Assembly (NCBI GenBank): GCA_011620585.1
Contig: WOYV01000036.1
Span: forward strand, 1-37,249
DNA from: Draconibacterium sp.
GTDB lineage: Bacteria; Bacteroidota; Bacteroidia; Bacteroidales; Prolixibacteraceae
Direction of reading: 5' to 3'
Length of the DNA: 37,249 nt
Below, in pieces: positions 18,433-29,867 of this stretch. A model generated the notes under the pieces. It was given only the letters and a program-made list of their open reading frames with translations, was not told the DNA's origin and ran no database searches. Position 1 is the first letter of the stretch. Each line of letters starts with the position of its first letter. A program made the translations under genes and the position numbers.

Positions 18433-19980
18433 TTGACAACATTAGGTAATCATATCATCGAGAGAGTTCATGTGGATGTATATCTTCGGGACGAAAAGAA
18501 AGCGCATCAGATCAAAGATCAGATTAGTGGATTTTTACAGAACGATGTATTTCCTGAACTGGAAAGCCTTTTAGATGAAATGAACGCCGGTAATCAGATT
18601 ATTCGTTACACCCAACTTGTTTTTGATATGAAAATCGAAAATTGGGAGCAGCGTTACCAGATAAAAAAAGAGCTGGTGCAAACCCTTCGGCAAAATATCG
18701 TTGAGTCGTTGGGTGTAAAAGTTCCTAAAACCGGCGAAAGATGGCGATTGGATGGAACCGGAAAGATTCTCGACACCGATTTGCACGGGGAATTTGTTAG
18801 TCCGGCACAGAATAATCGCAAAACGCTCTTGTTTTTTCTGGAACATGGTTATCTGCCCTGGTATGGAAAACGAGCCAATTTGGATGGGATATTGGAGGCG
18901 AAAACATGGGGGAAATTAGTAAGTGACGATTCTTTTGCTGTTCCACTGATCTCACTTTTAAATGAAAAAGAAAATGCAATGCAACGATTTGTGCTTCAGC
19001 TTTCCAGCTTGCATGTTATTTCCTTTTTAAGGGCTAATAACATTTTTATTGATCGCTCCGGATTTGAAAAGTTTTTGAAAACACTTTCAGCAAAATCACA
19101 AAAATTACTTATCGAATATTTACTGCGTGTTTCCGTGTCGTCCGGCAAAGAAATTTCCGGAAGCCGATTCTCGCAGCTGTTAAGTAGCTTTTTGAAAGAG
19201 GGCGTAGTTTCACCATCGGAAAATATAGCTAAGATAAATAATGAACTACATAAAAAGCTTGGGAAATATTTGAAGGATAGTGTTGTCCGTCAGTATTTTG
19301 AAATTGGAGAAGAAGAAATAAAAGATATTGTGATGTTTAAAGGGCGTCACCCGGTTGAACACACAAAAAGGGGGTCTATTCTAATCAAAGGGCCTATTGT
19401 TGAAAATGACCCAACCGTTATTTCAAAAGGATCAGTATACACTGATTACGAAAAAGAACCGCTGTTTTTCGAAAATGACACAGGTGAAATCATCGTTCGA
19501 AATGCAGGACAGGTTCTTTTTCATCCTTTTTTGAAATACTTTTTTGAACACTTCGATTGGTTAAACAAGGAAAACCAAATAAAAGAGGAATACCGGATAC
19601 TGGCTTTGCAGTCAGTACATTTTTGTGCAACCGGTGCAGAAACCTTTTGGGAGGAAGAGATGATACTGGAAAAGTTTCTTTGCGGCGTTAAGCTGGAAAC
19701 ACCTGTTCCTGCTCTTAGTCTGCTAACGCCGGAAATCAAAAAGGAAGCAAATGAAATGCTGGAACAAGTTGTAGACAACTGGAAAGTGTTAAAAAATACT
19801 TCGGTTGAAGGAATGCGTGAGATGTTTTTCCATCGGGATGGAAAACTTGTTCGATTGGATAAAAATTTCAAACTGATTGTGGAACGAAAAGCACAGGATA
19901 TTTTACTGGATAAGTTGCCATGGGGCGTGTCCATTATTAAGTTACCGTGGACGGAGCAATTGTTATTTGTTGATTGGTAA
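18433..19980 (+). CDS. CIS tape measure protein (CIS_TMP, Afp14-like)
   Basis: The 515-aa product carries the features of the contractile injection system tape measure family, which sets tube length and occupies the lumen during assembly. It has the opening HIIERVHVDVYL, the conserved AGQVLFHPFLKYFFEHFDWL block (about residues 358-377) with a later HFCATGAETFWEEEM, and the ending LPWGVSIIKLPW...LLFVDW. The start is TTG at 18433, 1 nt after the previous stop. An in-frame GTG at 18472 would cut off the conserved opening, so the TTG is preferred. At 515 aa it is short for a tape measure, which would predict a modest particle length if the length rule holds. Confidence 0.88.
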   Translation: MTTLGNHIIERVHVDVYLRDEKKAHQIKDQISGFLQNDVFPELESLLDEMNAGNQIIRYTQLVFDMKIENWEQRYQIKKELVQTLRQNIVESLGVKVPKTGERWRLDGTGKILDTDLHGEFVSPAQNNRKTLLFFLEHGYLPWYGKRANLDGILEAKTWGKLVSDDSFAVPLISLLNEKENAMQRFVLQLSSLHVISFLRANNIFIDRSGFEKFLKTLSAKSQKLLIEYLLRVSVSSGKEISGSRFSQLLSSFLKEGVVSPSENIAKINNELHKKLGKYLKDSVVRQYFEIGEEEIKDIVMFKGRHPVEHTKRGSILIKGPIVENDPTVISKGSVYTDYEKEPLFFENDTGEIIVRNAGQVLFHPFLKYFFEHFDWLNKENQIKEEYRILALQSVHFCATGAETFWEEEMILEKFLCGVKLETPVPALSLLTPEIKKEANEMLEQVVDNWKVLKNTSVEGMREMFFHRDGKLVRLDKNFKLIVERKAQDILLDKLPWGVSIIKLPWTEQLLFVDW

Positions 19981-20108
19981 GCTATGAAACGACCTTGCAA
20001 CTTGTTTGGGAACCCTTTTAATTTGATGAAAATGATAGCGTTGCTATTAATCAGATTGGGGAAGAGGGAGTTACATCGAATTCCATTGAAATAAACAATT
20101 TTAATGAG
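19981..20108 (+). other. 128-nt gap between structural and cargo genes
   Basis: This is the longest gap within the eCIS operon. A 36-codon frame (19984-20094) exists but resembles no family. The frame of the next gene is open back to about 20022 without an ATG, GTG or TTG, so an extended N-terminus using a non-standard start cannot be excluded. No promoter box is evident. Confidence 0.4.
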
Positions 20109-21956
20109 ATGAAACGAGGAAACAGAATTTACAGATCGAATTACAGTGGCCGAAGAAATCATTCGCCGTTGTTTTCACAATCCGGGGAGTCATCTTTTTT
20201 TCCGGCACAGGCCAAACTTACAGTAGGCCAGCCAGGTGATCGTTTTGAGCGGGAAGCAGATCGTGTTGCAGATGTCGTTGTCAGTCAAAATGCACAGCAT
20301 AGCTCTTTAATCGGATTGGATAATAATGGGTTTAGTAATGCTGGAAAAAGTATTTCAGAAAGTATAACGCCGCTGGTTCAGCAAGAAATGGAAGAAGTTG
20401 GCACGGCACAGCGGCAGCCAAAGGAAGAAGAGGAAGAAATTGCACAACCAAAACTGGAGGAAGAAGAGGAAGCTGTTCAGGCCCAGACAGAAGAAGAGGA
20501 AGAAGAGCCGGTTCAAGCCAAACAGGATGAGGAAGAGGAACTACAGATGCAGCAGGAAGAAGAGGAAGAAATAATGCCAAAATCTGAAGGAAGTGCGCAA
20601 CCTGCTTCAAATGTGGAAAGCACTTTGGCTTCAAGTCCGGGAAGCGGATCAAAAATGGACAACAACATTCGTTCTGAAATGGAAAGCGGTTTTGGAGCCG
20701 ATTTTAGCCAGGTAAGAATTCACACAGGGCACGATGCTGTAAATATGAACCGCCAAATGGGAGCACAAGCTTTTGCTCATGGTAACGATATTTATTTTAA
20801 TAAAGGAAAATACGATCCTAATTCGCAAAAAGGAAAGCATTTGCTGGTACACGAACTTACGCATACCATCCAGCAAAAAGGTTTTGTAAAGGCCGATGTG
20901 CAAACCACGATGGATGATAACCGGGATCTTGTGTCGGATCGATTTAGTGGTAATTTACGATTGGAAGCCTGTTTGGATGGAGAACGAACGCTGAGTTATG
21001 GAAGTACAGGGCGACCGGTTTCATTAATACAGCAGGCTTTGGTTGATGCCGGTTTCCCTTTGCCGGTGTATGGCGTTGATGGGATCTTTAAAAATGAAAC
21101 AAAAGCAGCAGTGGAAAGCTTTCAACGTTCATCATCGTTACCGGAAACAGGAATAATTGATGCCCGAACCATGGCTTCGCTCGACGGATTATTCTCTTGG
21201 GGAGCGCCAACTTTGCCAACCGGAACTCCAGCAACTGAAGCTCCAACCATTACTTCTTCAACCATAAGTATTGCTCCCGACGGAACTGCCGATGAACGTA
21301 CATTGGTTGGAGTGGGAGAATTTGTTCGGTTTACCGGAAACACAGAAGGTATCTGGACTACCACTGCCGGGCGAATCGTTGGTTTGAATTCGGGGCAAAA
21401 CATGGTGTGGGAAGCGCCGCCGGTACCGATGCTTAGTGTTATTACACTTACCAATCAGGCCGGTTCAACCTCCATGATCATGTCAACTACTGCTCCTGAC
21501 TCAATTTCCTTAGAGCGGTCAGCAATTCTTCCTATCCCTGCCGGAACATTGGGCGCTGCAATGGAAGCCGATATTACGGTTCATCCCTTAAACGTAAACT
21601 TTGGGCGTACGCTGTGGTTCGAAGAACCCGGTCCGGCAACCAATGTAAGTGGTTATTTTAACCAGTTTTCTGCTGCCGATCTTCATCATGATCCCAATCC
21701 GAATTATCTGCCGTTTGATGATATGAATACCGGGCTAAACGATGAGGCTGCATGGAGGGGAGGTAATCCACCATACAGCAGAGGTTATCACGAATGGGTG
21801 ATTCCAAACAAATACAAGATTGACGGAGAGTCGGATGCACAGGGAAGGGTTTTTACAAATGTTACTCAGTCGTTCTTTGTAACTCCGGGAGGTAGTTTTA
21901 TAGTAGCCAAAGCAGGAGCATTTATTTTTCGGACACTGAACAATTTTACGCTATAA
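20109..21956 (+). CDS. DUF4157 eCIS cargo candidate with peptidoglycan-binding domain
   Basis: This 615-aa protein is a likely eCIS-associated cargo. The N-terminal motif TVGQPGDRFEREADRVAD starts at Thr38. Residues 105-154 are an acidic repeat region of Glu runs separated by Gln/Ala/Pro spacers. The DUF4157 (eCIS core) domain spans about 190-258 and ends with an intact zinc-protease-like motif HELTHT, with His248, Glu249 and His252. A PG_binding_1-like repeat follows (about 287-358, with GSTGRPVSLIQQALVDAGF and GVDGIFKNETKAAVESFQ). The C-terminal 250 residues are beta-rich, with the segment ERSAILPIPAGTLGAAMEAD, and are not assigned to a characterised family. There is no signal peptide, as expected for a particle-loaded protein. 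Cargo status is inferred from domain and context. Confidence 0.8.
   Translation: MKRGNRIYRSNYSGRRNHSPLFSQSGESSFFPAQAKLTVGQPGDRFEREADRVADVVVSQNAQHSSLIGLDNNGFSNAGKSISESITPLVQQEMEEVGTAQRQPKEEEEEIAQPKLEEEEEAVQAQTEEEEEEPVQAKQDEEEELQMQQEEEEEIMPKSEGSAQPASNVESTLASSPGSGSKMDNNIRSEMESGFGADFSQVRIHTGHDAVNMNRQMGAQAFAHGNDIYFNKGKYDPNSQKGKHLLVHELTHTIQQKGFVKADVQTTMDDNRDLVSDRFSGNLRLEACLDGERTLSYGSTGRPVSLIQQALVDAGFPLPVYGVDGIFKNETKAAVESFQRSSSLPETGIIDARTMASLDGLFSWGAPTLPTGTPATEAPTITSSTISIAPDGTADERTLVGVGEFVRFTGNTEGIWTTTAGRIVGLNSGQNMVWEAPPVPMLSVITLTNQAGSTSMIMSTTAPDSISLERSAILPIPAGTLGAAMEADITVHPLNVNFGRTLWFEEPGPATNVSGYFNQFSAADLHHDPNPNYLPFDDMNTGLNDEAAWRGGNPPYSRGYHEWVIPNKYKIDGESDAQGRVFTNVTQSFFVTPGGSFIVAKAGAFIFRTLNNFTL
20421..20570 (+). 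repeat. Glu-run repeat tract, period about 33 nt
   Basis: GAA/GAG-rich DNA encodes residues 105-154 of the 615-aa protein as five Glu runs (4-6 residues each) separated by 5-7-residue spacers such as IAQPKL, AVQAQT and PVQAKQD, roughly an 11-residue unit repeated. Similar acidic linkers occur between the N-terminal motif and core of other DUF4157 proteins. The tract is likely flexible and prone to length change. Confidence 0.75.
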
Positions 21957-21995
21957 ACGGCATTTTTTGAATTTCTAAAAGGTAAACGATGATTT

Positions 21996-24900
21996 ATGTA
22001 CGAATCAAAATCGGCACAAAAAAGTAGTACCCACTCTTCCGCTTCAAACCGGAACGAGCCTTTTATCCAGCCCAGTTTAAAGGTTGGACAACCGGGAGAC
22101 AAGTACGAAGTTGAAGCCGATCAGATGGCCGATCAGATTGTACAGCAAGGCACGGTACAAAACATCTCGCAGGATACTTTTTTCCCTACCTCCGATAGTG
22201 TAAATGCCAAATTTCAGAATTCCTCCGGGGGATTTTTTGGCGCGGGAACAAGCGCTGAGAAATCGGACGAAGAAGAGCAGCTAAATGAACCGGAAGAAGA
22301 TGCCCTTCAGGCTGGTTCAATCGTCCGGAAAAGTACCGATATCCCCGAAGAAGAACCGGAATTACAAACCAAGTCTGATACTCATAATGATGCAAGTTTG
22401 GTGGAATCGTCACTTGAAGCTTCAAAAGGCAGTGGAAGTTCGCTGAGCGGCGATACGAAAAGTGAAATGGAATCGGGTTTTGGAGCGGATTTTGGCAGTG
22501 TTCGGATTCACACCGGAAGCGATGCGGTGCAAATGAGTGAAAAGCTGAATGCCCAGGCTTTTACACACGGAAACGATATTTATTTTAACGAAGGAAACTA
22601 TAACCCGGCAACCGAATCGGGTAAACATTTGCTGGCGCACGAGCTGACACATACGGTTCAGCAGGGAGCTTCAGTCCAGCGTAAAATGATCCAGAAGCAG
22701 GAAAATGATTCCTCAACTCTTGAACCGGAAATGCCTGAAATGGTAAATGAAAATACTTTCCGCGGAAGTGAAGGGATCATCAATAAATCTCAGCATACTT
22801 TTGAAATTCCGGAGGTCAGTATTCCGGCGTTTAAAAGAGATTTTACACCAGCTTCTAACTTAACTATAAGAAGGGGGCGACCTGAGGGAGAAAGACGAAA
22901 TACACGGCAACGAACTTTGTGGGACGCCGCCGCACGCGAGGGAGCAGGCTTAAATACCAAACTCGATCAGAAAATAGCAAAGGCAGGTGCTTTTGGTGAA
23001 ACTTACAATCCAGTTTATTATATGAAAGTTGGACGGGGAAGAGGAGATTCTCAGCAATACCTGGTGGGTACCCGAACATCTATACGAGACAGGCTTTTAC
23101 GACCTTATTGGAGACCCGGTGGACAAATGCAATTATTTGAAGTGGATCATAAACTGGAATACCAGTTGAGTGGAGAAGATAGTTTGGATAATTTATGGCT
23201 GCTGGAAAGAGAAGCAAATGGAAGTTCCGGTAGAAATATAGATAAAGAACTGGAACGAAAAACGAATCGTTTACTCCATGCTTCATCCGGAACGGCTGTC
23301 TGGAACAATGAGCAGGCGCCGAACTTTCGGGAAGCAAAGCGGAATTTCGATATTACCTTTCAGGCTGTTAATTTCGATTTACCGTATGATCACGCCGGAA
23401 ATCCGCCCCATTCTTATTCTTTGACTGAAATAAAAGACAATGCATCTCATCTGAATGCGGTTAATCCAATGACAATGAGAGATGTAGAAAGAGCAGGTAT
23501 TCAGGGGTCTCCCACTAGGCTCGTGATATTTAATAATGCCACCGGTGGCAGAAGCTTCCCAATCGAAATCCCAACCGTTGACGCTACTTCGGTACCATTC
23601 ACTAACCGTCATTTTCTTCCGGGGTTTATACCAACTACCGCTGAGATTCATCCTGAGCAAACGAACTTCGTAAAAATCAATGGGCAATTATGGTCGTCCA
23701 ATCCAAATTTATACGGGCACGGATTAAATACTTATGTTGAGGTTGCTCAAATGGAAGGAGTTCCCCATACCGGACGGTTAAATGTAACTGCATTGCGAAG
23801 TCAAATTGAAGAGCTGTTTGGTTCTGAAAATATTCAGGTAACAAATCTCAGTCCGGTGCGCATTACGTCAATAGATGTGGATGCACAGGGGAACATGATT
23901 ATTCATGGAAAGATTATTACCAATATTCCGTTGATAGACAATGCCAATATTGACCTGGTTATTGAGGGGAATGATATTCGGGTGGAAAAAACTTTTTACG
24001 GGAGCGACTTCTCAATTCCGGGACCACTGACGGTTACCAATTCAAGTTTAACAGTCGCAATAAGCACAGAGAACGGATTTGTCCTTTCCGGTGAGGCCGG
24101 ACTTGAAATCTCAAATCTTGCTGAAGGGCAAATTTCTGCATCAGCCCGTTCCGGGCGGAGAGGAGGAGAAAGTGCAGGTTTTGATCTGAGTGGATATTTA
24201 GAATTTGATACCCAATTATTTGACCCTGCACGTATTGATGTTAGTTATGTAAACAAAATACTTACTGTTGGTGGTAGCATAACTATTCCTGAAGGGAAAG
24301 TCCCGGGTATAAAAACGGCAACGCTAAATGCGATTTACAGTGAAAACAATTTTAACGCCTCCGGCGATGCCGAACTCGATATTCCCGGAATCGAACAGGG
24401 AACGCTTTCTGTAAATTACGGGGAGGAAGGTTTTTCCATGTCCGGAGATTTTAACCTGAGTTCTGAAATCCCCGGGATACAGGGCGGAACTGTGTCGGCG
24501 CGGGTAGGAAAAGAGGAAGGTGCAGAAGGTTATGATATTATGATTTCCGGTACAGCACAGCCTGATATTCCCGGAATCGACTCAACGTTGACCGTTAGTT
24601 ACGAAAACGGTGCGCTTACCATTGAAGGGCAAGCAGCTTACGAACGCGGAATGCTCAGTGGAAATGTACGTTTGGGTGCTACCAACCGAACCATTGGTGA
24701 CGACGGCCAGCCTACAGGCGAGCCTGATGATACGATGCGGGTTTACGGTGGCGGAGATCTCACGCTGCAACTTACACCGTGGCTGGAAGCAACGGCCGGT
24801 GTGCAGTTTCTTCCAAACGGTGAAATTGAAGTAACCGGCAGGATTGGTTTGCCAAATACAGTGGATGTTTTTGACCGGCGCGAATTCAACCGAAATCTTT

Positions 24901-25562
24901 TTACAGTGCCAACGGTTGAAATCCCAATTTTTGCTATTCCGCTGGGACCACGCAGTATTGGTTTGGTAGCACAAATTAGTGGAGGACTCGATTTTTCAGC
25001 CGGATTTGGTCCCGGGCAGTTGCGCGAAGTGAATGCCGAGGTTACCTACAATCCTGACCGTGAAGATGAAACCGAAATTCATGGCCATGGCGAGTTTGCG
25101 ATTCCTGCGGATGCCGGACTTACTTTGCGTGGCGATCTCGGATTGGGCGTAAGCGTGGCCATTGCCAGTTTGTCGGGGGGTATTGAATTGGCCGGAACAC
25201 TCGGTCTGGAAGGAGAAGCTTCCGCTATGGTTGATTTATCATGGAGCCCCCAAACAGGAGTGGTACTCGATGCGGAAGGACGAATCACGGTGAATCCAAA
25301 ATTTGTGTTCGATGTAAATGCCTTTGCCCGCGCGAGCCTCGGCATTGGCTGGTTTTCGATCTCAGAAACCTGGAGATACAATCTTGCCTCGTTTAGCTGG
25401 GGACCCGATATTCAATTTGGAATAGTGTTCCCGGTTCATTACCAGCAAGATCAGCCTTTTGATATTTCATTCGACGATATTGAAGTAATCTATCCCGACC
25501 TTGACGTAATTGATATGGCAAAAGGACTGGCACGCAATATTAAAGATGACATTTTTGATTAA
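21996..25562 (+). CDS. DUF4157 eCIS cargo candidate with HNH-like nuclease motif and beta-repeat C-terminus
   Basis: The 1188-aa product shares its N-terminal plan with the preceding gene. The motif VGQPGDKYEVEAD starts at Val30, an acidic linker follows, and the DUF4157 core ends in HELTHT with His215, Glu216 and His219. Downstream, residues about 370-412 carry an HNH-like signature: VDHKLEYQL with Asp384-His385, DNLWLL with Asn399, and EAN with Asn408, followed by GSSGR. The spacing (14 then 9) fits HNH folds, with Asn in place of the last His. Residues about 560-1188 are long beta repeats around VPGI/IPGI motifs at 769, 796, 825 and 858, then a glycine-rich beta region. No signal peptide is present. 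A delivered nuclease toxin is the leading hypothesis. The function of the repeat region is unknown. Confidence 0.75.
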   Translation: MYESKSAQKSSTHSSASNRNEPFIQPSLKVGQPGDKYEVEADQMADQIVQQGTVQNISQDTFFPTSDSVNAKFQNSSGGFFGAGTSAEKSDEEEQLNEPEEDALQAGSIVRKSTDIPEEEPELQTKSDTHNDASLVESSLEASKGSGSSLSGDTKSEMESGFGADFGSVRIHTGSDAVQMSEKLNAQAFTHGNDIYFNEGNYNPATESGKHLLAHELTHTVQQGASVQRKMIQKQENDSSTLEPEMPEMVNENTFRGSEGIINKSQHTFEIPEVSIPAFKRDFTPASNLTIRRGRPEGERRNTRQRTLWDAAAREGAGLNTKLDQKIAKAGAFGETYNPVYYMKVGRGRGDSQQYLVGTRTSIRDRLLRPYWRPGGQMQLFEVDHKLEYQLSGEDSLDNLWLLEREANGSSGRNIDKELERKTNRLLHASSGTAVWNNEQAPNFREAKRNFDITFQAVNFDLPYDHAGNPPHSYSLTEIKDNASHLNAVNPMTMRDVERAGIQGSPTRLVIFNNATGGRSFPIEIPTVDATSVPFTNRHFLPGFIPTTAEIHPEQTNFVKINGQLWSSNPNLYGHGLNTYVEVAQMEGVPHTGRLNVTALRSQIEELFGSENIQVTNLSPVRITSIDVDAQGNMIIHGKIITNIPLIDNANIDLVIEGNDIRVEKTFYGSDFSIPGPLTVTNSSLTVAISTENGFVLSGEAGLEISNLAEGQISASARSGRRGGESAGFDLSGYLEFDTQLFDPARIDVSYVNKILTVGGSITIPEGKVPGIKTATLNAIYSENNFNASGDAELDIPGIEQGTLSVNYGEEGFSMSGDFNLSSEIPGIQGGTVSARVGKEEGAEGYDIMISGTAQPDIPGIDSTLTVSYENGALTIEGQAAYERGMLSGNVRLGATNRTIGDDGQPTGEPDDTMRVYGGGDLTLQLTPWLEATAGVQFLPNGEIEVTGRIGLPNTVDVFDRREFNRNLFTVPTVEIPIFAIPLGPRSIGLVAQISGGLDFSAGFGPGQLREVNAEVTYNPDREDETEIHGHGEFAIPADAGLTLRGDLGLGVSVAIASLSGGIELAGTLGLEGEASAMVDLSWSPQTGVVLDAEGRITVNPKFVFDVNAFARASLGIGWFSISETWRYNLASFSWGPDIQFGIVFPVHYQQDQPFDISFDDIEVIYPDLDVIDMAKGLARNIKDDIFD
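24300..24587 (+). repeat. IPGI beta-repeat region in the 1188-aa protein
   Basis: Four copies of the PGI-type motif (VPGI at residue 769, IPGI at 796, 825 and 858) are spaced 27-33 residues apart, each followed by short alternating strands with SG turns. This is a protein-level repeat. At DNA level the copies are only moderately similar, for example attcccggaatcga near 24381 and 24567. Confidence 0.6.
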
Positions 25563-25572
25563 TAATTTAGAC

Positions 25573-26427
25573 ATGGATAAATTGATTGAATTAAATAACC
25601 AGGGAGTTACACATTTTCTGAATCAGCGGTTTAAAGAAGCTGAAGATTCGTACAACAAAGTGCTGGAGATGGATGCACACAATGCTACGGCACTGAATAA
25701 CCTGGGATTGCTTTACCATCAGCAAAAACAATACAACGATGCAGAAAAATGTTTTGAGGAGGCGATTAATGCAAACCCGAGATCTTCTTATTATCTAAAT
25801 CTTGCCAATGTGCAGGTCTTTCTAAAGAAATGGGATGTGGCTGAAAAAAATTATAACAAGGCTTGTAAATTGGATGCAAGAAACCAAAAAGCCAAAATTA
25901 GTCTGGCTCGTTTTTATGAAACCCGGCAATTTTATTCAAAAGCTGCTGAAGTTTGGTTCGATTTGATCATACAAACCAACGAAACTGAATACAAGATAAA
26001 CCTGGCCGGAAACAAAATGGCAATGGGGCAGTTTGAAGAAGCATTGGCCATTCTTTCAAAACTAACCGATCAGAAAGAAGCTGCCATGGTTTATCATCAA
26101 ATCGGCATTTGCGAGTTGAACCTGAAGAATTACGGCTTGGCGCTGCTGGCCTTCCGCAACAGCCTTGGGCTTGCTCCCGACAATTTGGGTACACGTCATT
26201 ACATGGCTGTGACTTTGCTGGCGGCAGGAGAGTATGAGAAAGCGTTGAGGGAATTCGATCTTCTTCTGAGAATGGAACCCAAAAGTATAAAGTTTCGTTT
26301 GGATAAGGCTTCGGTGTTGCTGTCGCTAAAGCGCACTGGCGAGGCAAAAGCGTTGATCGACCAGGTTTTAATACGTGATCCGGAGAATGAAAAAGCAATA
26401 AAATATCTTAAATTGTTAAACGTTTAA
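25573..26427 (+). CDS. TPR-repeat protein between cargo and ATPase genes
   Basis: The 284-aa product from the ATG at 25573 is built from tetratricopeptide repeats. Clear copies are LNNQGVTHFLNQRFKEAEDS, ATALNNLGLLYHQQKQYNDA and AMVYHQIGICELNLKNYGLA, with several degenerate ones reaching the C-terminus. An upstream ATG at 25510 would place 21 residues inside the previous gene, so the later start is chosen. TPR proteins mediate protein-protein contacts. With no signal peptide it is cytosolic, and its position between the cargo genes and the ATPase suggests an assembly or cargo-loading adaptor, which is inference. It starts 10 nt after the cargo gene stop. Confidence 0.85.
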   Translation: MDKLIELNNQGVTHFLNQRFKEAEDSYNKVLEMDAHNATALNNLGLLYHQQKQYNDAEKCFEEAINANPRSSYYLNLANVQVFLKKWDVAEKNYNKACKLDARNQKAKISLARFYETRQFYSKAAEVWFDLIIQTNETEYKINLAGNKMAMGQFEEALAILSKLTDQKEAAMVYHQIGICELNLKNYGLALLAFRNSLGLAPDNLGTRHYMAVTLLAAGEYEKALREFDLLLRMEPKSIKFRLDKASVLLSLKRTGEAKALIDQVLIRDPENEKAIKYLKLLNV

Positions 26428-26438
26428 GAAAATATTTA

Positions 26439-27794
26439 ATGGTTGTATCGGCTGTAAATAGGATGGAAAGTATTTACCAACAGGTTTTTACTTTTGTTCG
26501 GATGGGAATTCTACATCGGCTAAACCTGGATTTCAAAAAAGAGAATCATTCAGAGTCGGGCATCCCCGATTTTTCGTTTGGGACAGATACGATATTAGGG
26601 AAATTTATTGCCGAAAATAAATTAAGTAGCGAAGAAGTTTTTTGCTTGTTTCTGGCGTTAATGCCGCATTTATCGCCCGGTTTTATTTCTGGTGTAGTTG
26701 GGGCATATCTTCCCAATGGAGGTGAGTTTCCGGAGTTTGGTGGAGTAAAAGGTAAAAACCACCGTGGAATTATTCCAACCGGAGAAACGGTTCTTTACCT
26801 GCTGGCCGGAAAAGACCTGGTAAAAAGAGTGAAGATGATCCGCATGTTTGAAGAAGACCACCTGTTTGCGCGGAAGAATGTTCTTTTTCTGGATCAAGTT
26901 CTGGCCGGAGAACCCAAAATGAGTGGTCGCCTGGTGTTGGATGAGGAATATGTCGATCTTTTTCTAACCGGTAAAATATCAAAACCAAAACTTAATAATG
27001 ACTTTCCTGCTCAACTGATTACTACTCAACTCGAATGGAAAGACTTGGTTTTGAATGAGAAAACACTCGATGAAATCAAAGAAATTGAGACCTGGTTAAA
27101 ATTCAATGCCGATCTGCTTGACCAATGGAAATTGCATGGAAAAGTAAAACCCGGGTTTCGCGTGCTTTTTCACGGGCCACCCGGAACCGGAAAAACCATG
27201 ACTGCCTGCCTGCTTGGGAAATATACCAGCCGCGATGTGTTCAGGATCGATCTGTCGATGGTCGTCTCAAAGTACATCGGTGAAACTGAAAAAAATCTTT
27301 CCAAACTTTTTGATAAGGCAGCCAACAAAGACTGGATTTTATTTTTTGACGAAGCCGATTCCATTTTTGGAAAACGCACCAATGTAAGGGATGCACACGA
27401 TAAATATGCCAACCAGGAAGTTTCGTATTTATTGCAACGCATCGAAGCCCACGACGGTCTGGTAATTTTGGCCACCAATATGAAAGCAAATATCGATTCT
27501 TCCTTTACGCGCCGTTTTAATGCCATTATCGAATTTGAAAATCCCGGACCGCAGGAACGCCGGAGACTCTGGGATAATTATTTGCCTGCCGGCATTGAAC
27601 TCGATCAAGCCATCAACCTAAACGAGATTTCGCGAAATTACGAATTAACGGGCGCAAACATTGTTAACGTCATTCAGTATGCTGGTCTCCAGACTCTTGA
27701 AAAGAAACGTAGCTCGCTTGTTAAGGAAGATATGCTGAAAGGAATTCATAAAGAATACCTCAAGGAAGGAAAATTAATTAGGAATGCGGAATAA
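26439..27794 (+). CDS. AAA+ ATPase of the eCIS (Afp15-like)
   Basis: This 451-aa protein is the AAA+ ATPase found in most eCIS loci (Afp15/Pvc15), needed for assembly or cargo handling. The Walker A motif GPPGTGKT lies at residues 246-253 (Lys252), the Walker B FFDEAD around 302-307 (Asp304, Glu305), then RRFNAIIEFENPG with the arginine-finger region. The N-terminal 200 residues are a non-AAA domain typical of this family. ATG 26439 is used, but ATG 26463 (MESIYQQVF) is equally plausible. It is the last gene of the operon, 11 nt after the TPR gene, and its end overlaps a possible longer form of the next gene. Confidence 0.93.
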   Translation: MVVSAVNRMESIYQQVFTFVRMGILHRLNLDFKKENHSESGIPDFSFGTDTILGKFIAENKLSSEEVFCLFLALMPHLSPGFISGVVGAYLPNGGEFPEFGGVKGKNHRGIIPTGETVLYLLAGKDLVKRVKMIRMFEEDHLFARKNVLFLDQVLAGEPKMSGRLVLDEEYVDLFLTGKISKPKLNNDFPAQLITTQLEWKDLVLNEKTLDEIKEIETWLKFNADLLDQWKLHGKVKPGFRVLFHGPPGTGKTMTACLLGKYTSRDVFRIDLSMVVSKYIGETEKNLSKLFDKAANKDWILFFDEADSIFGKRTNVRDAHDKYANQEVSYLLQRIEAHDGLVILATNMKANIDSSFTRRFNAIIEFENPGPQERRRLWDNYLPAGIELDQAINLNEISRNYELTGANIVNVIQYAGLQTLEKKRSSLVKEDMLKGIHKEYLKEGKLIRNAE

Positions 27795-27800
27795 ATTCAG

Positions 27801-27831
27801 TTTGTTCTTTTCGTCGAAAAATGTAAATTCA
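27801..27831 (+). promoter_or_regulatory. Candidate Bacteroidota promoter for the esterase gene
   Basis: TTTG at 27801-27804 is followed after 19 nt by TAAATTCA at 27824-27831, which matches TAnnTT of the -7 box but not its last two bases. It lies between the eCIS ATPase stop and the esterase start, so it would let the carbohydrate genes be expressed apart from the eCIS operon. Confidence 0.4.
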
Positions 27832-27855
27832 CGAAATAACATTCATGTCAAACTT

Positions 27856-29118
27856 ATGAATTCACTTCGATTTCTGCTCGTATTTTTACTTTTCTCCCCA
27901 GCGCTGGTGTTTTCGCAAGCCAATTACGATGAAAGTAAAGTACCTGGTTTCAAATTACCGGATCCACTGATTTCATTTCGTCAAAGGAAAATCAGGAACG
28001 TAAAACAATGGGAAAAGACTCGGCGTCCCGAATTACTCGATTTCTTTACAAAAAATATGTATGGCGAAATTCCGGGGAAACTGGAAATATCCTCGTTTAA
28101 TATTTTGGAACAGGGGGATGATGCATTCAACGGAAAAGCGAAACGCAGGCAGGTTGAACTCACTTTTGAAAAAGGCAAGCACAAAATACACTTTAACATT
28201 TTAATGTATCTTCCGAAGGGAGTGGAAAAAGCCCCACTTTTCCTTGGTTATAATTTCTCGGGGAATCATTCGGTAGCCAGCGATCCGCATATTCTTATTT
28301 CCACTGCCTGGGTAGAAGACAATCCCTCGCTGGGCATTATCAATAACCAGTTTACCGAACAATCACGCGGGGCAAAGGCCAATCGCTGGGCAATTGAAAA
28401 GATGCTCGATGCCGGTTTTGGACTGGCAACGATTTACTACGGCGAGGTGGATCCGGATAAAGAGGATTATTCCGATGGTATTCAACCTTTTTTTTATGTC
28501 GATGACCAGAAAAAGCCCGCGGATAACGAATGGGGTTCTGTGGCAGTTTGGGCCTGGGGATTAAGTCGCGCAATGGACTATCTTGAACAGGATCAGGACG
28601 TGGATGCTCAAAAAGTAATCGTATTCGGGCATTCGAGGCTGGGAAAAACTGCATTGTGGGCTGGCGTCAACGATCAACGATTTGCGGGAGTAATTTCCAA
28701 CGACTCCGGGTGTGGGGGAGCTGCGCTATCGAAACGCGAATTTGGGGAAACCATTAAGCTGATTAACACGAGTTTTCCGCACTGGTTTTGCAAGAACTTT
28801 AAAAACTACAGTGGAAACGAAAAGGCGCTTCCCGTCGATCAGCACGAGGTGCTTGCCATGATTGCCCCACGGCCATTGTATGTAGCCAGTGCCGAAGACG
28901 ACCAATGGGCTGATCCTGGAGGGGAGTTTTTATCGGTGGTGTATGCCAGCCCGGTGTATAAATTATATGGGGTTCAGGGGATTACCCAAACTGAAATGCC
29001 CGCTGTGAACCAGCCAGTAATGGGGCCGGTAGCTTACCACATCCGTAGTGGAAAACACGATGTTACCGAATTCGATTGGGAGCAATATATTCGGTGGGCT
29101 AAACAATACATTCAATAA
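27856..29118 (+). CDS. Secreted glucuronoyl esterase-like alpha/beta hydrolase (CE15-like)
   Basis: The 420-aa product (from ATG 27856) begins with a clear signal peptide, MNSLRFLLVFLLFSPALVFS followed by Q. The catalytic serine is in GHSRLGKTALW (Ser260), the serine-arginine-x-glycine-lysine form found in CE15 glucuronoyl esterases. NDSGCGGAALSKREFGE follows, and the candidate catalytic histidine is His401 in RSGKHD. Such enzymes cut ester bonds between lignin and glucuronic acid on xylan. The acid of the triad is not assigned. An ATG at 27784 would add 24 residues overlapping the ATPase, so the signal-peptide start is preferred. The product is probably periplasmic or secreted and has no clear link to eCIS function. 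Confidence 0.82.
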   Translation: MNSLRFLLVFLLFSPALVFSQANYDESKVPGFKLPDPLISFRQRKIRNVKQWEKTRRPELLDFFTKNMYGEIPGKLEISSFNILEQGDDAFNGKAKRRQVELTFEKGKHKIHFNILMYLPKGVEKAPLFLGYNFSGNHSVASDPHILISTAWVEDNPSLGIINNQFTEQSRGAKANRWAIEKMLDAGFGLATIYYGEVDPDKEDYSDGIQPFFYVDDQKKPADNEWGSVAVWAWGLSRAMDYLEQDQDVDAQKVIVFGHSRLGKTALWAGVNDQRFAGVISNDSGCGGAALSKREFGETIKLINTSFPHWFCKNFKNYSGNEKALPVDQHEVLAMIAPRPLYVASAEDDQWADPGGEFLSVVYASPVYKLYGVQGITQTEMPAVNQPVMGPVAYHIRSGKHDVTEFDWEQYIRWAKQYIQ

Positions 29119-29138
29119 AAATGACGAACTCAAATACC

Positions 29139-29867
29139 ATGAAACGCATTTTATTTTTTTTCGGAACAATTGTAATTCTGGTTGCTTGTAAACAAGTGCA
29201 AAAACCACAAACCATTCACCTGTTTAATGGTATTGATTTGAGCGGTTGGCATGTCGATGTTCCGGATGCAGATACCAGTCCCGGTATCGAAAAATCATTT
29301 GTTGTAAACGACTCGTTGCTGATAAGTATGGGAGAACCCCGCGGACATTTGATCACCGATTCGGTTTTTAGTAATTACCGTTTGGATGTGGAATACCGCT
29401 TTGCATCCGAACCCGGAAACTGTGGAATTTTGGTACATGCATCCACACCACGTGCCTTGTATCAAATGTTTCCAAAATCGCTCGAAATTCAGATGCAAAG
29501 CGGCGATGCCGGCGACTTCTGGTGTATTGTGGAAGACATCACCGTGCCCGACATGGCAGAACGCCGCGGGGCTGAAGAAAGCTGGGGGATCGTTGAAGGG
29601 AAAAACAGGCGAATAGTTAATCTTACCGGTGGTTCGGAAAAGCCGCTGGGCGAATGGAACGCCATGAAAATTGAATGCGTGGCCGATACCGTTAAGGTTT
29701 GGGTTAACAATGATCTGGTCAACTATGGCTATAACTGTACGGCTTCCAAAGGACAAATTGCCGTGCAGGCTGAAGGCGCCAAAGTGGAATTCAGAAAAAT
29801 TGATTTAACACCGATAGAAAAGATAACTCCTGGTTCGGAGTATGTTTTTGAGGGACTTTCAAAATAA
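29139..29867 (+). CDS. DUF1080 (3-keto-disaccharide hydrolase family) lipoprotein
   Basis: The 242-aa product starts MKRILFFFGTIVILVAC, a lipoprotein signal peptide with the lipidated cysteine at residue 17. The DUF1080 hallmark LFNGIDLSGWHVD follows, then the concanavalin-like body with FRLDVEYRF-type strands (YRLDVEYRFASEPGNCGI) and AMKIECVADTVKVWVNNDLV. The family includes 3-keto-glycoside hydrolases and carbohydrate-binding proteins of Bacteroidota. An ATG at 29121 would add 6 residues in front of the signal peptide, so 29139 is preferred. It follows the esterase after 20 nt, and the two probably form a small polysaccharide-related unit. Confidence 0.85.
   Translation: MKRILFFFGTIVILVACKQVQKPQTIHLFNGIDLSGWHVDVPDADTSPGIEKSFVVNDSLLISMGEPRGHLITDSVFSNYRLDVEYRFASEPGNCGILVHASTPRALYQMFPKSLEIQMQSGDAGDFWCIVEDITVPDMAERRGAEESWGIVEGKNRRIVNLTGGSEKPLGEWNAMKIECVADTVKVWVNNDLVNYGYNCTASKGQIAVQAEGAKVEFRKIDLTPIEKITPGSEYVFEGLSK

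What the first reader, a model, noticed from the sequence alone, without database searches (positions are those of the whole stretch)
20109..25562. Tandem DUF4157 cargo pair with shared front and unrelated payloads
The two genes share VGQPGD and a DUF4157 core nearly identical in phrase order (SEMESGFGADF, VRIHTG, HGNDIYFN, HLL.HELTHT) but diverge completely afterwards. This looks like a modular delivery head with swappable payloads, comparable in principle to the polymorphic toxin idea. Both HELTHT motifs are intact, so the head may itself be a protease, possibly releasing the payload.
Basis: partly seen in the sequence, partly recalled or inferred. Interest (0 to 1): 0.8.

Follow-up and report, generated by a model that had tools for sequence, protein, structure and literature searches.

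The report
Injected proteins with a rearranged protease
Two neighbouring genes of a bacterial injection machine encode cargo proteins that share the same front; that front looks like a zinc protease whose parts have been rearranged, and only one of the two cargos carries an exchangeable, probably DNA- or RNA-cutting part, which sits in the middle of the protein and not at its end.

Summary
The pair is real: two DUF4157 (eCIS_core) cargo genes in a Maribellus-like eCIS locus, heads 61% identical over 96 aa, tails unrelated. A constant peptidase head with variable payloads, perhaps self-cleaving, was published in 2012, and tandem DUF4157 cargos are known from AlgoCIS, so that part is not new. 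(1) P1 is not polymorphic: its tail stays 93-94% identical in three related genomes. (2) In P2 the exchanged part is internal: against one relative head 88%, C-terminus 93%, middle 27%. The middles are diverged versions of one HNH-nuclease-like domain, with no covarying immunity gene; a TPR gene accompanies P2-type cargo (10 of 10 complete slots, 0 of 47 others; one incomplete slot lacks it). (3) The 'VGQPGD' front is part of the peptidase: its ExxA helix, which follows HExxH in many heads of other phyla, lies before the core here. Of 170 heads, 141 carry it N-terminally; 18 carry it, or its ExxA, after HExxH (8 by profile, 10 by eye); one of the 141 has both. Profiles align at 96% and 100% probability in reversed order: a circular permutation. 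Activity, self-cleavage and targets are untested.

The parts
20109..21956 (+). P1: DUF4157 cargo gene 1 (615 aa), tail not exchanged
20211..20291 (+). P1 VGQPGDRFEREAD motif (aa 35-61); Glu47 predicted third zinc ligand, permuted to the N-terminus
20292..20654 (+). P1 acidic linker between motif and core
   Evidence: charge table
20655..20882 (+). P1 eCIS_core with HELTH at aa 248-252
21009..21182 (+). P1 PG_binding_1 domain (aa 301-358)
   Evidence: E 3.3e-13
21219..21953 (+). P1 conserved C-terminal region, no Pfam match
21996..25562 (+). P2: DUF4157 cargo gene 2 (1188 aa), head - variable middle - fixed C-terminus
22071..22148 (+). P2 VGQPGDKYEVEAD motif (aa 26-51); Glu38 predicted third zinc ligand
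22149..22442 (+). P2 linker between motif and core, acidic in part
   Evidence: charge table
22443..22670 (+). P2 eCIS_core with HELTH at aa 215-219
22710..24267 (+). P2 internal variable cassette: no DNA match to three Maribellus loci there; its protein is 22-33% identical to the other middles that BLAST matched
23145..23231 (+). HNH-like motif DHxxExQ...N..L....N...G (aa 384-412) inside the cassette
24268..25562 (+). P2 fixed C-terminal region, 93% identical to the Maribellus copies; residues 762-1090 related to the trunk of a Tenacibaculum cargo
25573..26427 (+). TPR protein, seen only beside P2-type cargo; start codon uncertain (open frame from 25510)
18433..19980 (+). CIS tape-measure protein, upstream border of the cargo slot
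26439..27794 (+). AAA ATPase, downstream border of the cargo slot

Best explanation
P1 and P2 are two cargos of one eCIS particle, encoded in a cargo slot between the tape-measure gene and the AAA ATPase gene. Each begins with a short N-terminal stretch (probable loading signal; inferred) followed by a zincin-type peptidase domain that is circularly permuted: the helix with the predicted third zinc ligand (Glu47 in P1, Glu38 in P2) comes first, then an acidic linker, then the core with HExxH. P1 carries a fixed tail with a peptidoglycan-binding domain. P2 carries the polymorphic part, an HNH-nuclease-like cassette of about 520 aa, inserted between the head and a fixed C-terminal region of about 430 aa, and exchanged as a block between related bacteria. 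The TPR protein encoded next to P2 most likely acts as a chaperone or adaptor for its fixed parts, not as a cassette-specific immunity protein. After injection the head would refold, assemble its active site and may cut next to itself to free the payload. Shown here: architecture, permutation at sequence level, cassette difference with sharp edges, TPR association. Inferred: zinc binding, proteolysis, nuclease activity, loading, chaperone role.
For: Permutation: 141 of 170 heads have the motif upstream (HMM 8 bits or more; best of the shuffled controls 3.9), all 141 with ExxA, and one of them (L029) also downstream. Of the other 29: 18 have the motif or its ExxA after HExxH, 4 are cut at the 5' end, 3 are weak upstream cases, 4 have neither. 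Of the 18, 6 exceed the best shuffled score with the HMM made of upstream motifs only; 8 do with a second HMM into which downstream segments had been added; 10 were judged by eye. In 16 of these 18 the invariant columns include HExxH, QQ and the downstream E and A. Profile-profile: N-motif (36 of the 141) to columns 100-124 (96%, E 3.8e-9), core to columns 6-91 (100%) (no control profile was run). The unpermuted profile finds BepA, an M48-type zinc protease, E 1.7e-4, with ExEAD aligned. Cassette: window against L004 head 88, middle 27, C-term 93, TPR 83%; DNA gap 22710-24267; same pattern in L026/L022 and L191/L194. HNH: PF01844 hits 5 of 9 and 4 of 4 middles, all under the cut-off; D, H, E, Q, N, L, N, G of the motif invariant in 9 of 9. 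TPR in 10 of 10 against 0 of 47 distinct complete slots, and 5 of 5 genomes found later.
Against: No structure could be predicted. Searched alone, neither the permuted motif nor the core finds a zinc protease in the PDB, and the best motif hits are designed helical proteins. In the BepA match the best domain alone has i-Evalue 0.028 and the ExEAD part alone 350. No HNH match reaches Pfam's cut-off; the window's own middle scores 13 bits against 21.4. L020 has a P2-type gene without a TPR gene. In AlgoCIS, HExxH mutants of Cgo1 stayed toxic. Four cargo heads have no ExxA motif on either side and could be inactive, and three domain matches lack HExxH. The heads are related, so counts are not independent events.
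Confidence: 0.72

Rival explanations
1. The N-terminal VGQPGD-ExEAD motif is an independent eCIS loading signal that only resembles the peptidase helix, and the head is a non-catalytic packaging or chaperone domain.
For: Danov et al. propose a chaperone role for DUF4157 and describe an N-terminal signal (passages); the N-terminal 40 aa are 97% identical between the window and L004 in both proteins.
Against: HExxH intact in 115 of 115 heads above 80 bits; the same motif occurs after HExxH in heads of other phyla, and one head of 141 has both; Glu and Ala of the motif are invariant in both positions.
Confidence: 0.2
2. The P2 middle diverges by rapid point evolution under diversifying selection, not by block exchange.
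For: Middles of the P2-type genes compared are homologous and keep the HNH-like residues.
Against: 93% identical C-term and 88% head beside a 27% middle, with loss of DNA similarity at both edges; the same in two further pairs.
Confidence: 0.12
3. The TPR protein is an immunity protein for the P2 nuclease that recognises all alleles.
For: It directly follows P2-type genes and was found in no other slot.
Against: It stays 83% and 97% identical where the middle is 27% and 42%; pairwise identity follows the head (r 0.94) more than the middle (r 0.50), over 9 of the 11 P2-type genes, pairs not independent; its TPR-family matches include a type III secretion chaperone family, under cut-off.
Confidence: 0.2
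4. P1 is not a toxin cargo but an accessory particle part, for instance a plug or an anchor to peptidoglycan.
For: Fixed tail with PG_binding_1; proteins of 253-280 aa that match the P1 tail profile but have no head occur in the same slot in some relatives.
Against: It has the full cargo head; both AlgoCIS DUF4157 proteins fill the tube lumen.
Confidence: 0.3

Closest known systems
PVC-metallopeptidase polymorphic toxins (Zhang et al. 2012, PMC3482391)
   Same: DUF4157 head with HExxHxxQ, variable toxin, a notable part without immunity gene, proposed self-release
   Different: their signature puts the Glu after HExxH; here it is N-terminal; P2's variable part is internal; P1 is not variable
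AlgoCIS Cgo1/Cgo2 (PMC8894135, passages)
   Same: two DUF4157 genes with similar N-terminal parts and different C-termini
   Different: the paper calls the N-terminal part disordered; permutation, internal cassette and TPR partner are not mentioned in the passages I saw; orthology not tested
Haloarchaeal DUF4157 toxin-immunity pairs (PMC11566945, passages)
   Same: DUF4157 toxins delivered by a CIS
   Different: toxic ones have downstream partners that prevent toxicity; P2 has no neighbour that covaries with its payload
BepA (M48-type metallopeptidase, PDB 6ait)
   Same: HExxH and ExEAD, matched by the profile of unpermuted heads
   Different: order of the two motifs reversed in the window heads; only weakly related
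HNH endonucleases (PF01844)
   Same: DH...N...N residues, sub-threshold match
   Different: below Pfam cut-off; internal in a carrier protein

Membership tests
eCIS DUF4157 cargo | PF13699 domain over cut-off | tested here: met
   106.7 and 106 bits, cut-off 22
eCIS DUF4157 cargo | encoded in an eCIS locus | tested here: met
   sheath, tube, spike, PAAR, gp25, tape measure, AAA in the window
eCIS DUF4157 cargo | present in the particle lumen | not testable with these tools
   needs purified particles
PVC-metallopeptidase | HExxH | tested here: met
   115 of 115 heads above 80 bits
PVC-metallopeptidase | conserved Glu after HExxH | tested here: not met
   no column after QQ reaches 85% in 115 heads, within the stretch aligned; the motif is upstream
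PVC-metallopeptidase | zinc binding and proteolysis | not testable with these tools
   structure prediction off
classical polymorphic toxin | constant N-terminus with exchangeable C-terminal payload | tested here: not met
   P1 tail constant; P2 payload internal
classical polymorphic toxin | adjacent immunity gene that covaries with the payload | tested here: not met
   next gene is TPR, 83% against middle 27%
HNH nuclease | DH-N-N residues | tested here: met
   invariant in 9 of 9
HNH nuclease | Pfam score over cut-off | tested here: not met
   best 19.5 bits against 21.4; window's middle 13 bits
M48-like zincin | HExxH followed by ExEAD | tested here: not met
   both motifs present, order reversed
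AlgoCIS Cgo1/Cgo2 | sequence orthology | not tested
   that genome's proteins were not fetched

The most novel reading that the evidence does not exclude
The circular permutation is a safety catch of delivery: with the third-ligand helix separated from the HExxH core by a flexible acidic linker, the peptidase cannot form while the cargo is held in the tube, and it assembles, and frees or activates the payload, only after ejection.
Probability: 0.22. Interest if true: 0.82.

Novelty: new variant of a known kind. Interest (0 to 1): 0.62.

Why it matters
DUF4157 marks more than a thousand predicted eCIS cargos (1130 in Danov et al., passage), yet its function is called elusive there. If its hallmark N-terminal phrase is one half of a permuted zinc site, the old question whether the domain is a working peptidase becomes testable with one residue per protein, which is not among the mutants described in the passages I saw, and the domain borders used for signal prediction and cargo annotation need redrawing. 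The internal cassette shows that searches for toxin domains at C-termini can miss eCIS payloads.

Tried and rejected
A third DUF4157 match in the same assembly (C82, 23 bits) falls in frame into an ORF at 7000-8517 of L119 that looks like a Gfo/Idh-type oxidoreductase by its sequence (name recalled, not searched); rejected as chance. Immunity gene for P2: none between P2 and TPR. PDB searches with P2, the P2 middle and the P2 tail found nothing. The match of P1 to PDB 4nso (E 1.7e-5) is mostly the peptidoglycan-binding stretch and was not pursued. Phylum sample with the P2 middle: 8 of 395 genomes match, the window's own included; 5 others are long matches and 2 are short. Papers with DUF4157 and 'permut': 2, seen in the listing only, off the subject by title. 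Jana et al. 2020 (PMC7073777, outline and passages) concerns another toxin head, TANFOR.
Full report
Setting. The window lies in an assembly of 3.9 Mb. Its nearest named relatives are Maribellus (heads 95-96% identical). It holds an eCIS locus: cap, sheath, two tube proteins, CIS_tube, spike, PAAR, gp25, baseplate, a PKD protein (fibre-like by position; inferred), tape measure, the two genes of the finding, a TPR protein and an AAA ATPase.

P1 and P2 share one significant segment, from the VGQPGD phrase to just after HELTHTxQQ. Both HExxH motifs are intact.

What is already known. DUF4157 as a constant N-terminal metallopeptidase before variable toxins, thought to release the toxin by self-cleavage, is in Zhang et al. 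2012 (PMC3482391, section 13 read whole; further passages). Geller et al. 2021 (PMC8213781, passages) and Danov et al. 2024 (PMC11297309, passages) extend it. AlgoCIS Cgo1 and Cgo2 are two such cargos with similar N-terminal parts and different C-termini; in the double mutant about 93% of tubes were empty (PMC8894135, passages). Haloarchaeal DUF4157 toxins have partners that prevent toxicity (PMC11566945, passages).

Relatives. A scan of named genomes gave 30 loci. In the window's family 66 of 140 genomes have an eCIS_core match, in a phylum sample 65 of 296, the window's own included in both. From 120 loci including the window, some of them overlapping, I took 160 matching ORFs, 127 distinct, reduced to 116 after dropping weak and contained ones; 112 of these had tails of at least 40 aa and fell into 40 clusters.

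P1 is constant. Its tail is 92.9-94.0% identical in three Maribellus genomes, 78% in two further genomes and 52-58% in eight more, over nearly its whole length; two more share only its C-terminal part at 33-34%. Close relatives show no exchanged stretch; in more distant ones aa 441-480 fall to 22-37%.

P2 is exchanged in the middle. Against L004 the head is 88%, the middle 27% and the C-terminus 93% identical over aligned positions. At DNA level similarity stops at 22709 in three Maribellus loci and resumes at 24268 in two of them and at 24357 in the third. The pattern recurs in L026 against L022 and L191 against L194. Most pairs of middles that BLAST matches are 22-37% identical; near-copies and one pair at 69% are higher. 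All nine aligned ones keep D, H, E, Q, N, L, N and G of an HNH-like motif; a pattern of this motif was found in 11 of 116 cargo proteins, all of the P2 type. PF01844 HNH is found below cut-off in 5 of 9 and 4 of 4 further middles. Of 395 genomes of a phylum sample, 8 (the window's among them) match the middle.

Contrast with C-terminal tips. Against L008, four other Flavobacterium cargos are mostly over 90% identical in their first 1050 residues or so, while the last part differs wholly or in part in three and not in L017. The next gene goes with the tip in two pairs: L008 and L017 96% and 97%, L015 and L020 66% and 55%. Of the other 8 pairs that have a next gene, 6 show no similarity of it and 2 a weak one (20-21%) beside a weakly similar tip. 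Against a strict rule, L008 and L017 share 56% over about 210 aa of their tips with L014 although the next genes are unrelated, and L009 has no such gene. A Tenacibaculum tip matches a DNA/RNA non-specific endonuclease over cut-off. P2's C-terminal region is related to the part before that tip, so the modules are in a different order in P2.

The TPR gene. Of 57 distinct complete slots, 10 have a P2-type gene and all 10 a TPR gene; 47 have no P2-type gene and no TPR gene. Five genomes found later agree, 5 of 5, two of them with the same P2. L020, whose slot was incomplete upstream, has P2 without TPR. TPR does not vary with the middle.

The head. Zhang et al. place the third ligand Glu after HExxH. 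In 115 heads no column after QQ reaches 85% in the stretch aligned. Counts over 170 heads: 141 upstream, of which one also downstream; 18 downstream; 4 cut; 3 weak upstream; 4 with neither. Of the 18, 6 exceed the best shuffled score with the HMM of upstream motifs only, 8 with a second HMM to which downstream segments had been added, and 10 are by eye. In 16 of the 18 the only invariant columns are A, G, H, E, H, Q, Q, E and A. The upstream motif of 36 heads has D, E, A and A invariant. Profile comparison aligns the motif to the end and the core to the beginning of the unpermuted heads. The unpermuted profile matches BepA, and the first Glu of its ExEAD falls on residue 158 of the chain; counted from the HExxH this would be Glu201, which I recall as its third zinc ligand (numbering and role recalled). 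Among Pfam families, M48 is found below cut-off in 3 of 16 and M78 in 4 of 16 such heads. Hence Glu38 of P2 and Glu47 of P1 are the predicted third ligands. The linker between motif and core has a median of 103 aa and 22% acidic residues, against 12% after the head. I found no paper that describes this permutation (searches; 'permut' does not occur in the held text of Zhang et al.).

Limits. No structure, no activity. PDB searches with the separate pieces did not find a zinc protease. 13 of the 18 downstream heads came from one plasmid search, of which I fetched 20 of 90 records. Upstream heads are mostly Bacteroidota, with cyanobacteria and two proteobacterial plasmids; downstream ones are spread over several phyla (and the plasmid records).

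Noticed in passing
L008, L014, L015, L017, L009 (Flavobacterium), 7200 to about 12280: C-terminal tips of a 1297-1464 aa DUF4157 cargo are exchanged and the next gene partly varies with the tip; candidates for toxin-immunity pairs, one next gene weakly SUKH-like.
   Followed up: partly
L089_8521, L102_6959, L094_11060, L099_11253: Four cargo heads keep HExxH but have no ExxA motif before or after the core; possibly inactive peptidases.
   Followed up: no
L029 8967-14180: A Chamaesiphon cargo has the GxPGDxYExEAD motif on both sides of the core, as a duplication intermediate would.
   Followed up: no
L008 4280-6529 and relatives: A P1-position Flavobacterium cargo has a second zincin-like stretch, HELSHVAQY, unlike the head.
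   Followed up: no
window 20108-27773: Apart from the P2 middle, this stretch from P1 to the AAA gene is more similar to three Maribellus loci (81-87% DNA) than most of the other eCIS genes; tape measure protein 77-78% there but 39-40% in two other relatives. It may have moved as a block.
   Followed up: partly
window 27784-29867: Glucuronyl esterase-like and 3-keto-disaccharide hydrolase-like genes follow the AAA gene directly and are kept in five relatives.
   Followed up: no
L030 237-2063 and L031 2820-5225: Two cyanobacterial cargos are identical over 550 residues and then differ at the end.
   Followed up: no
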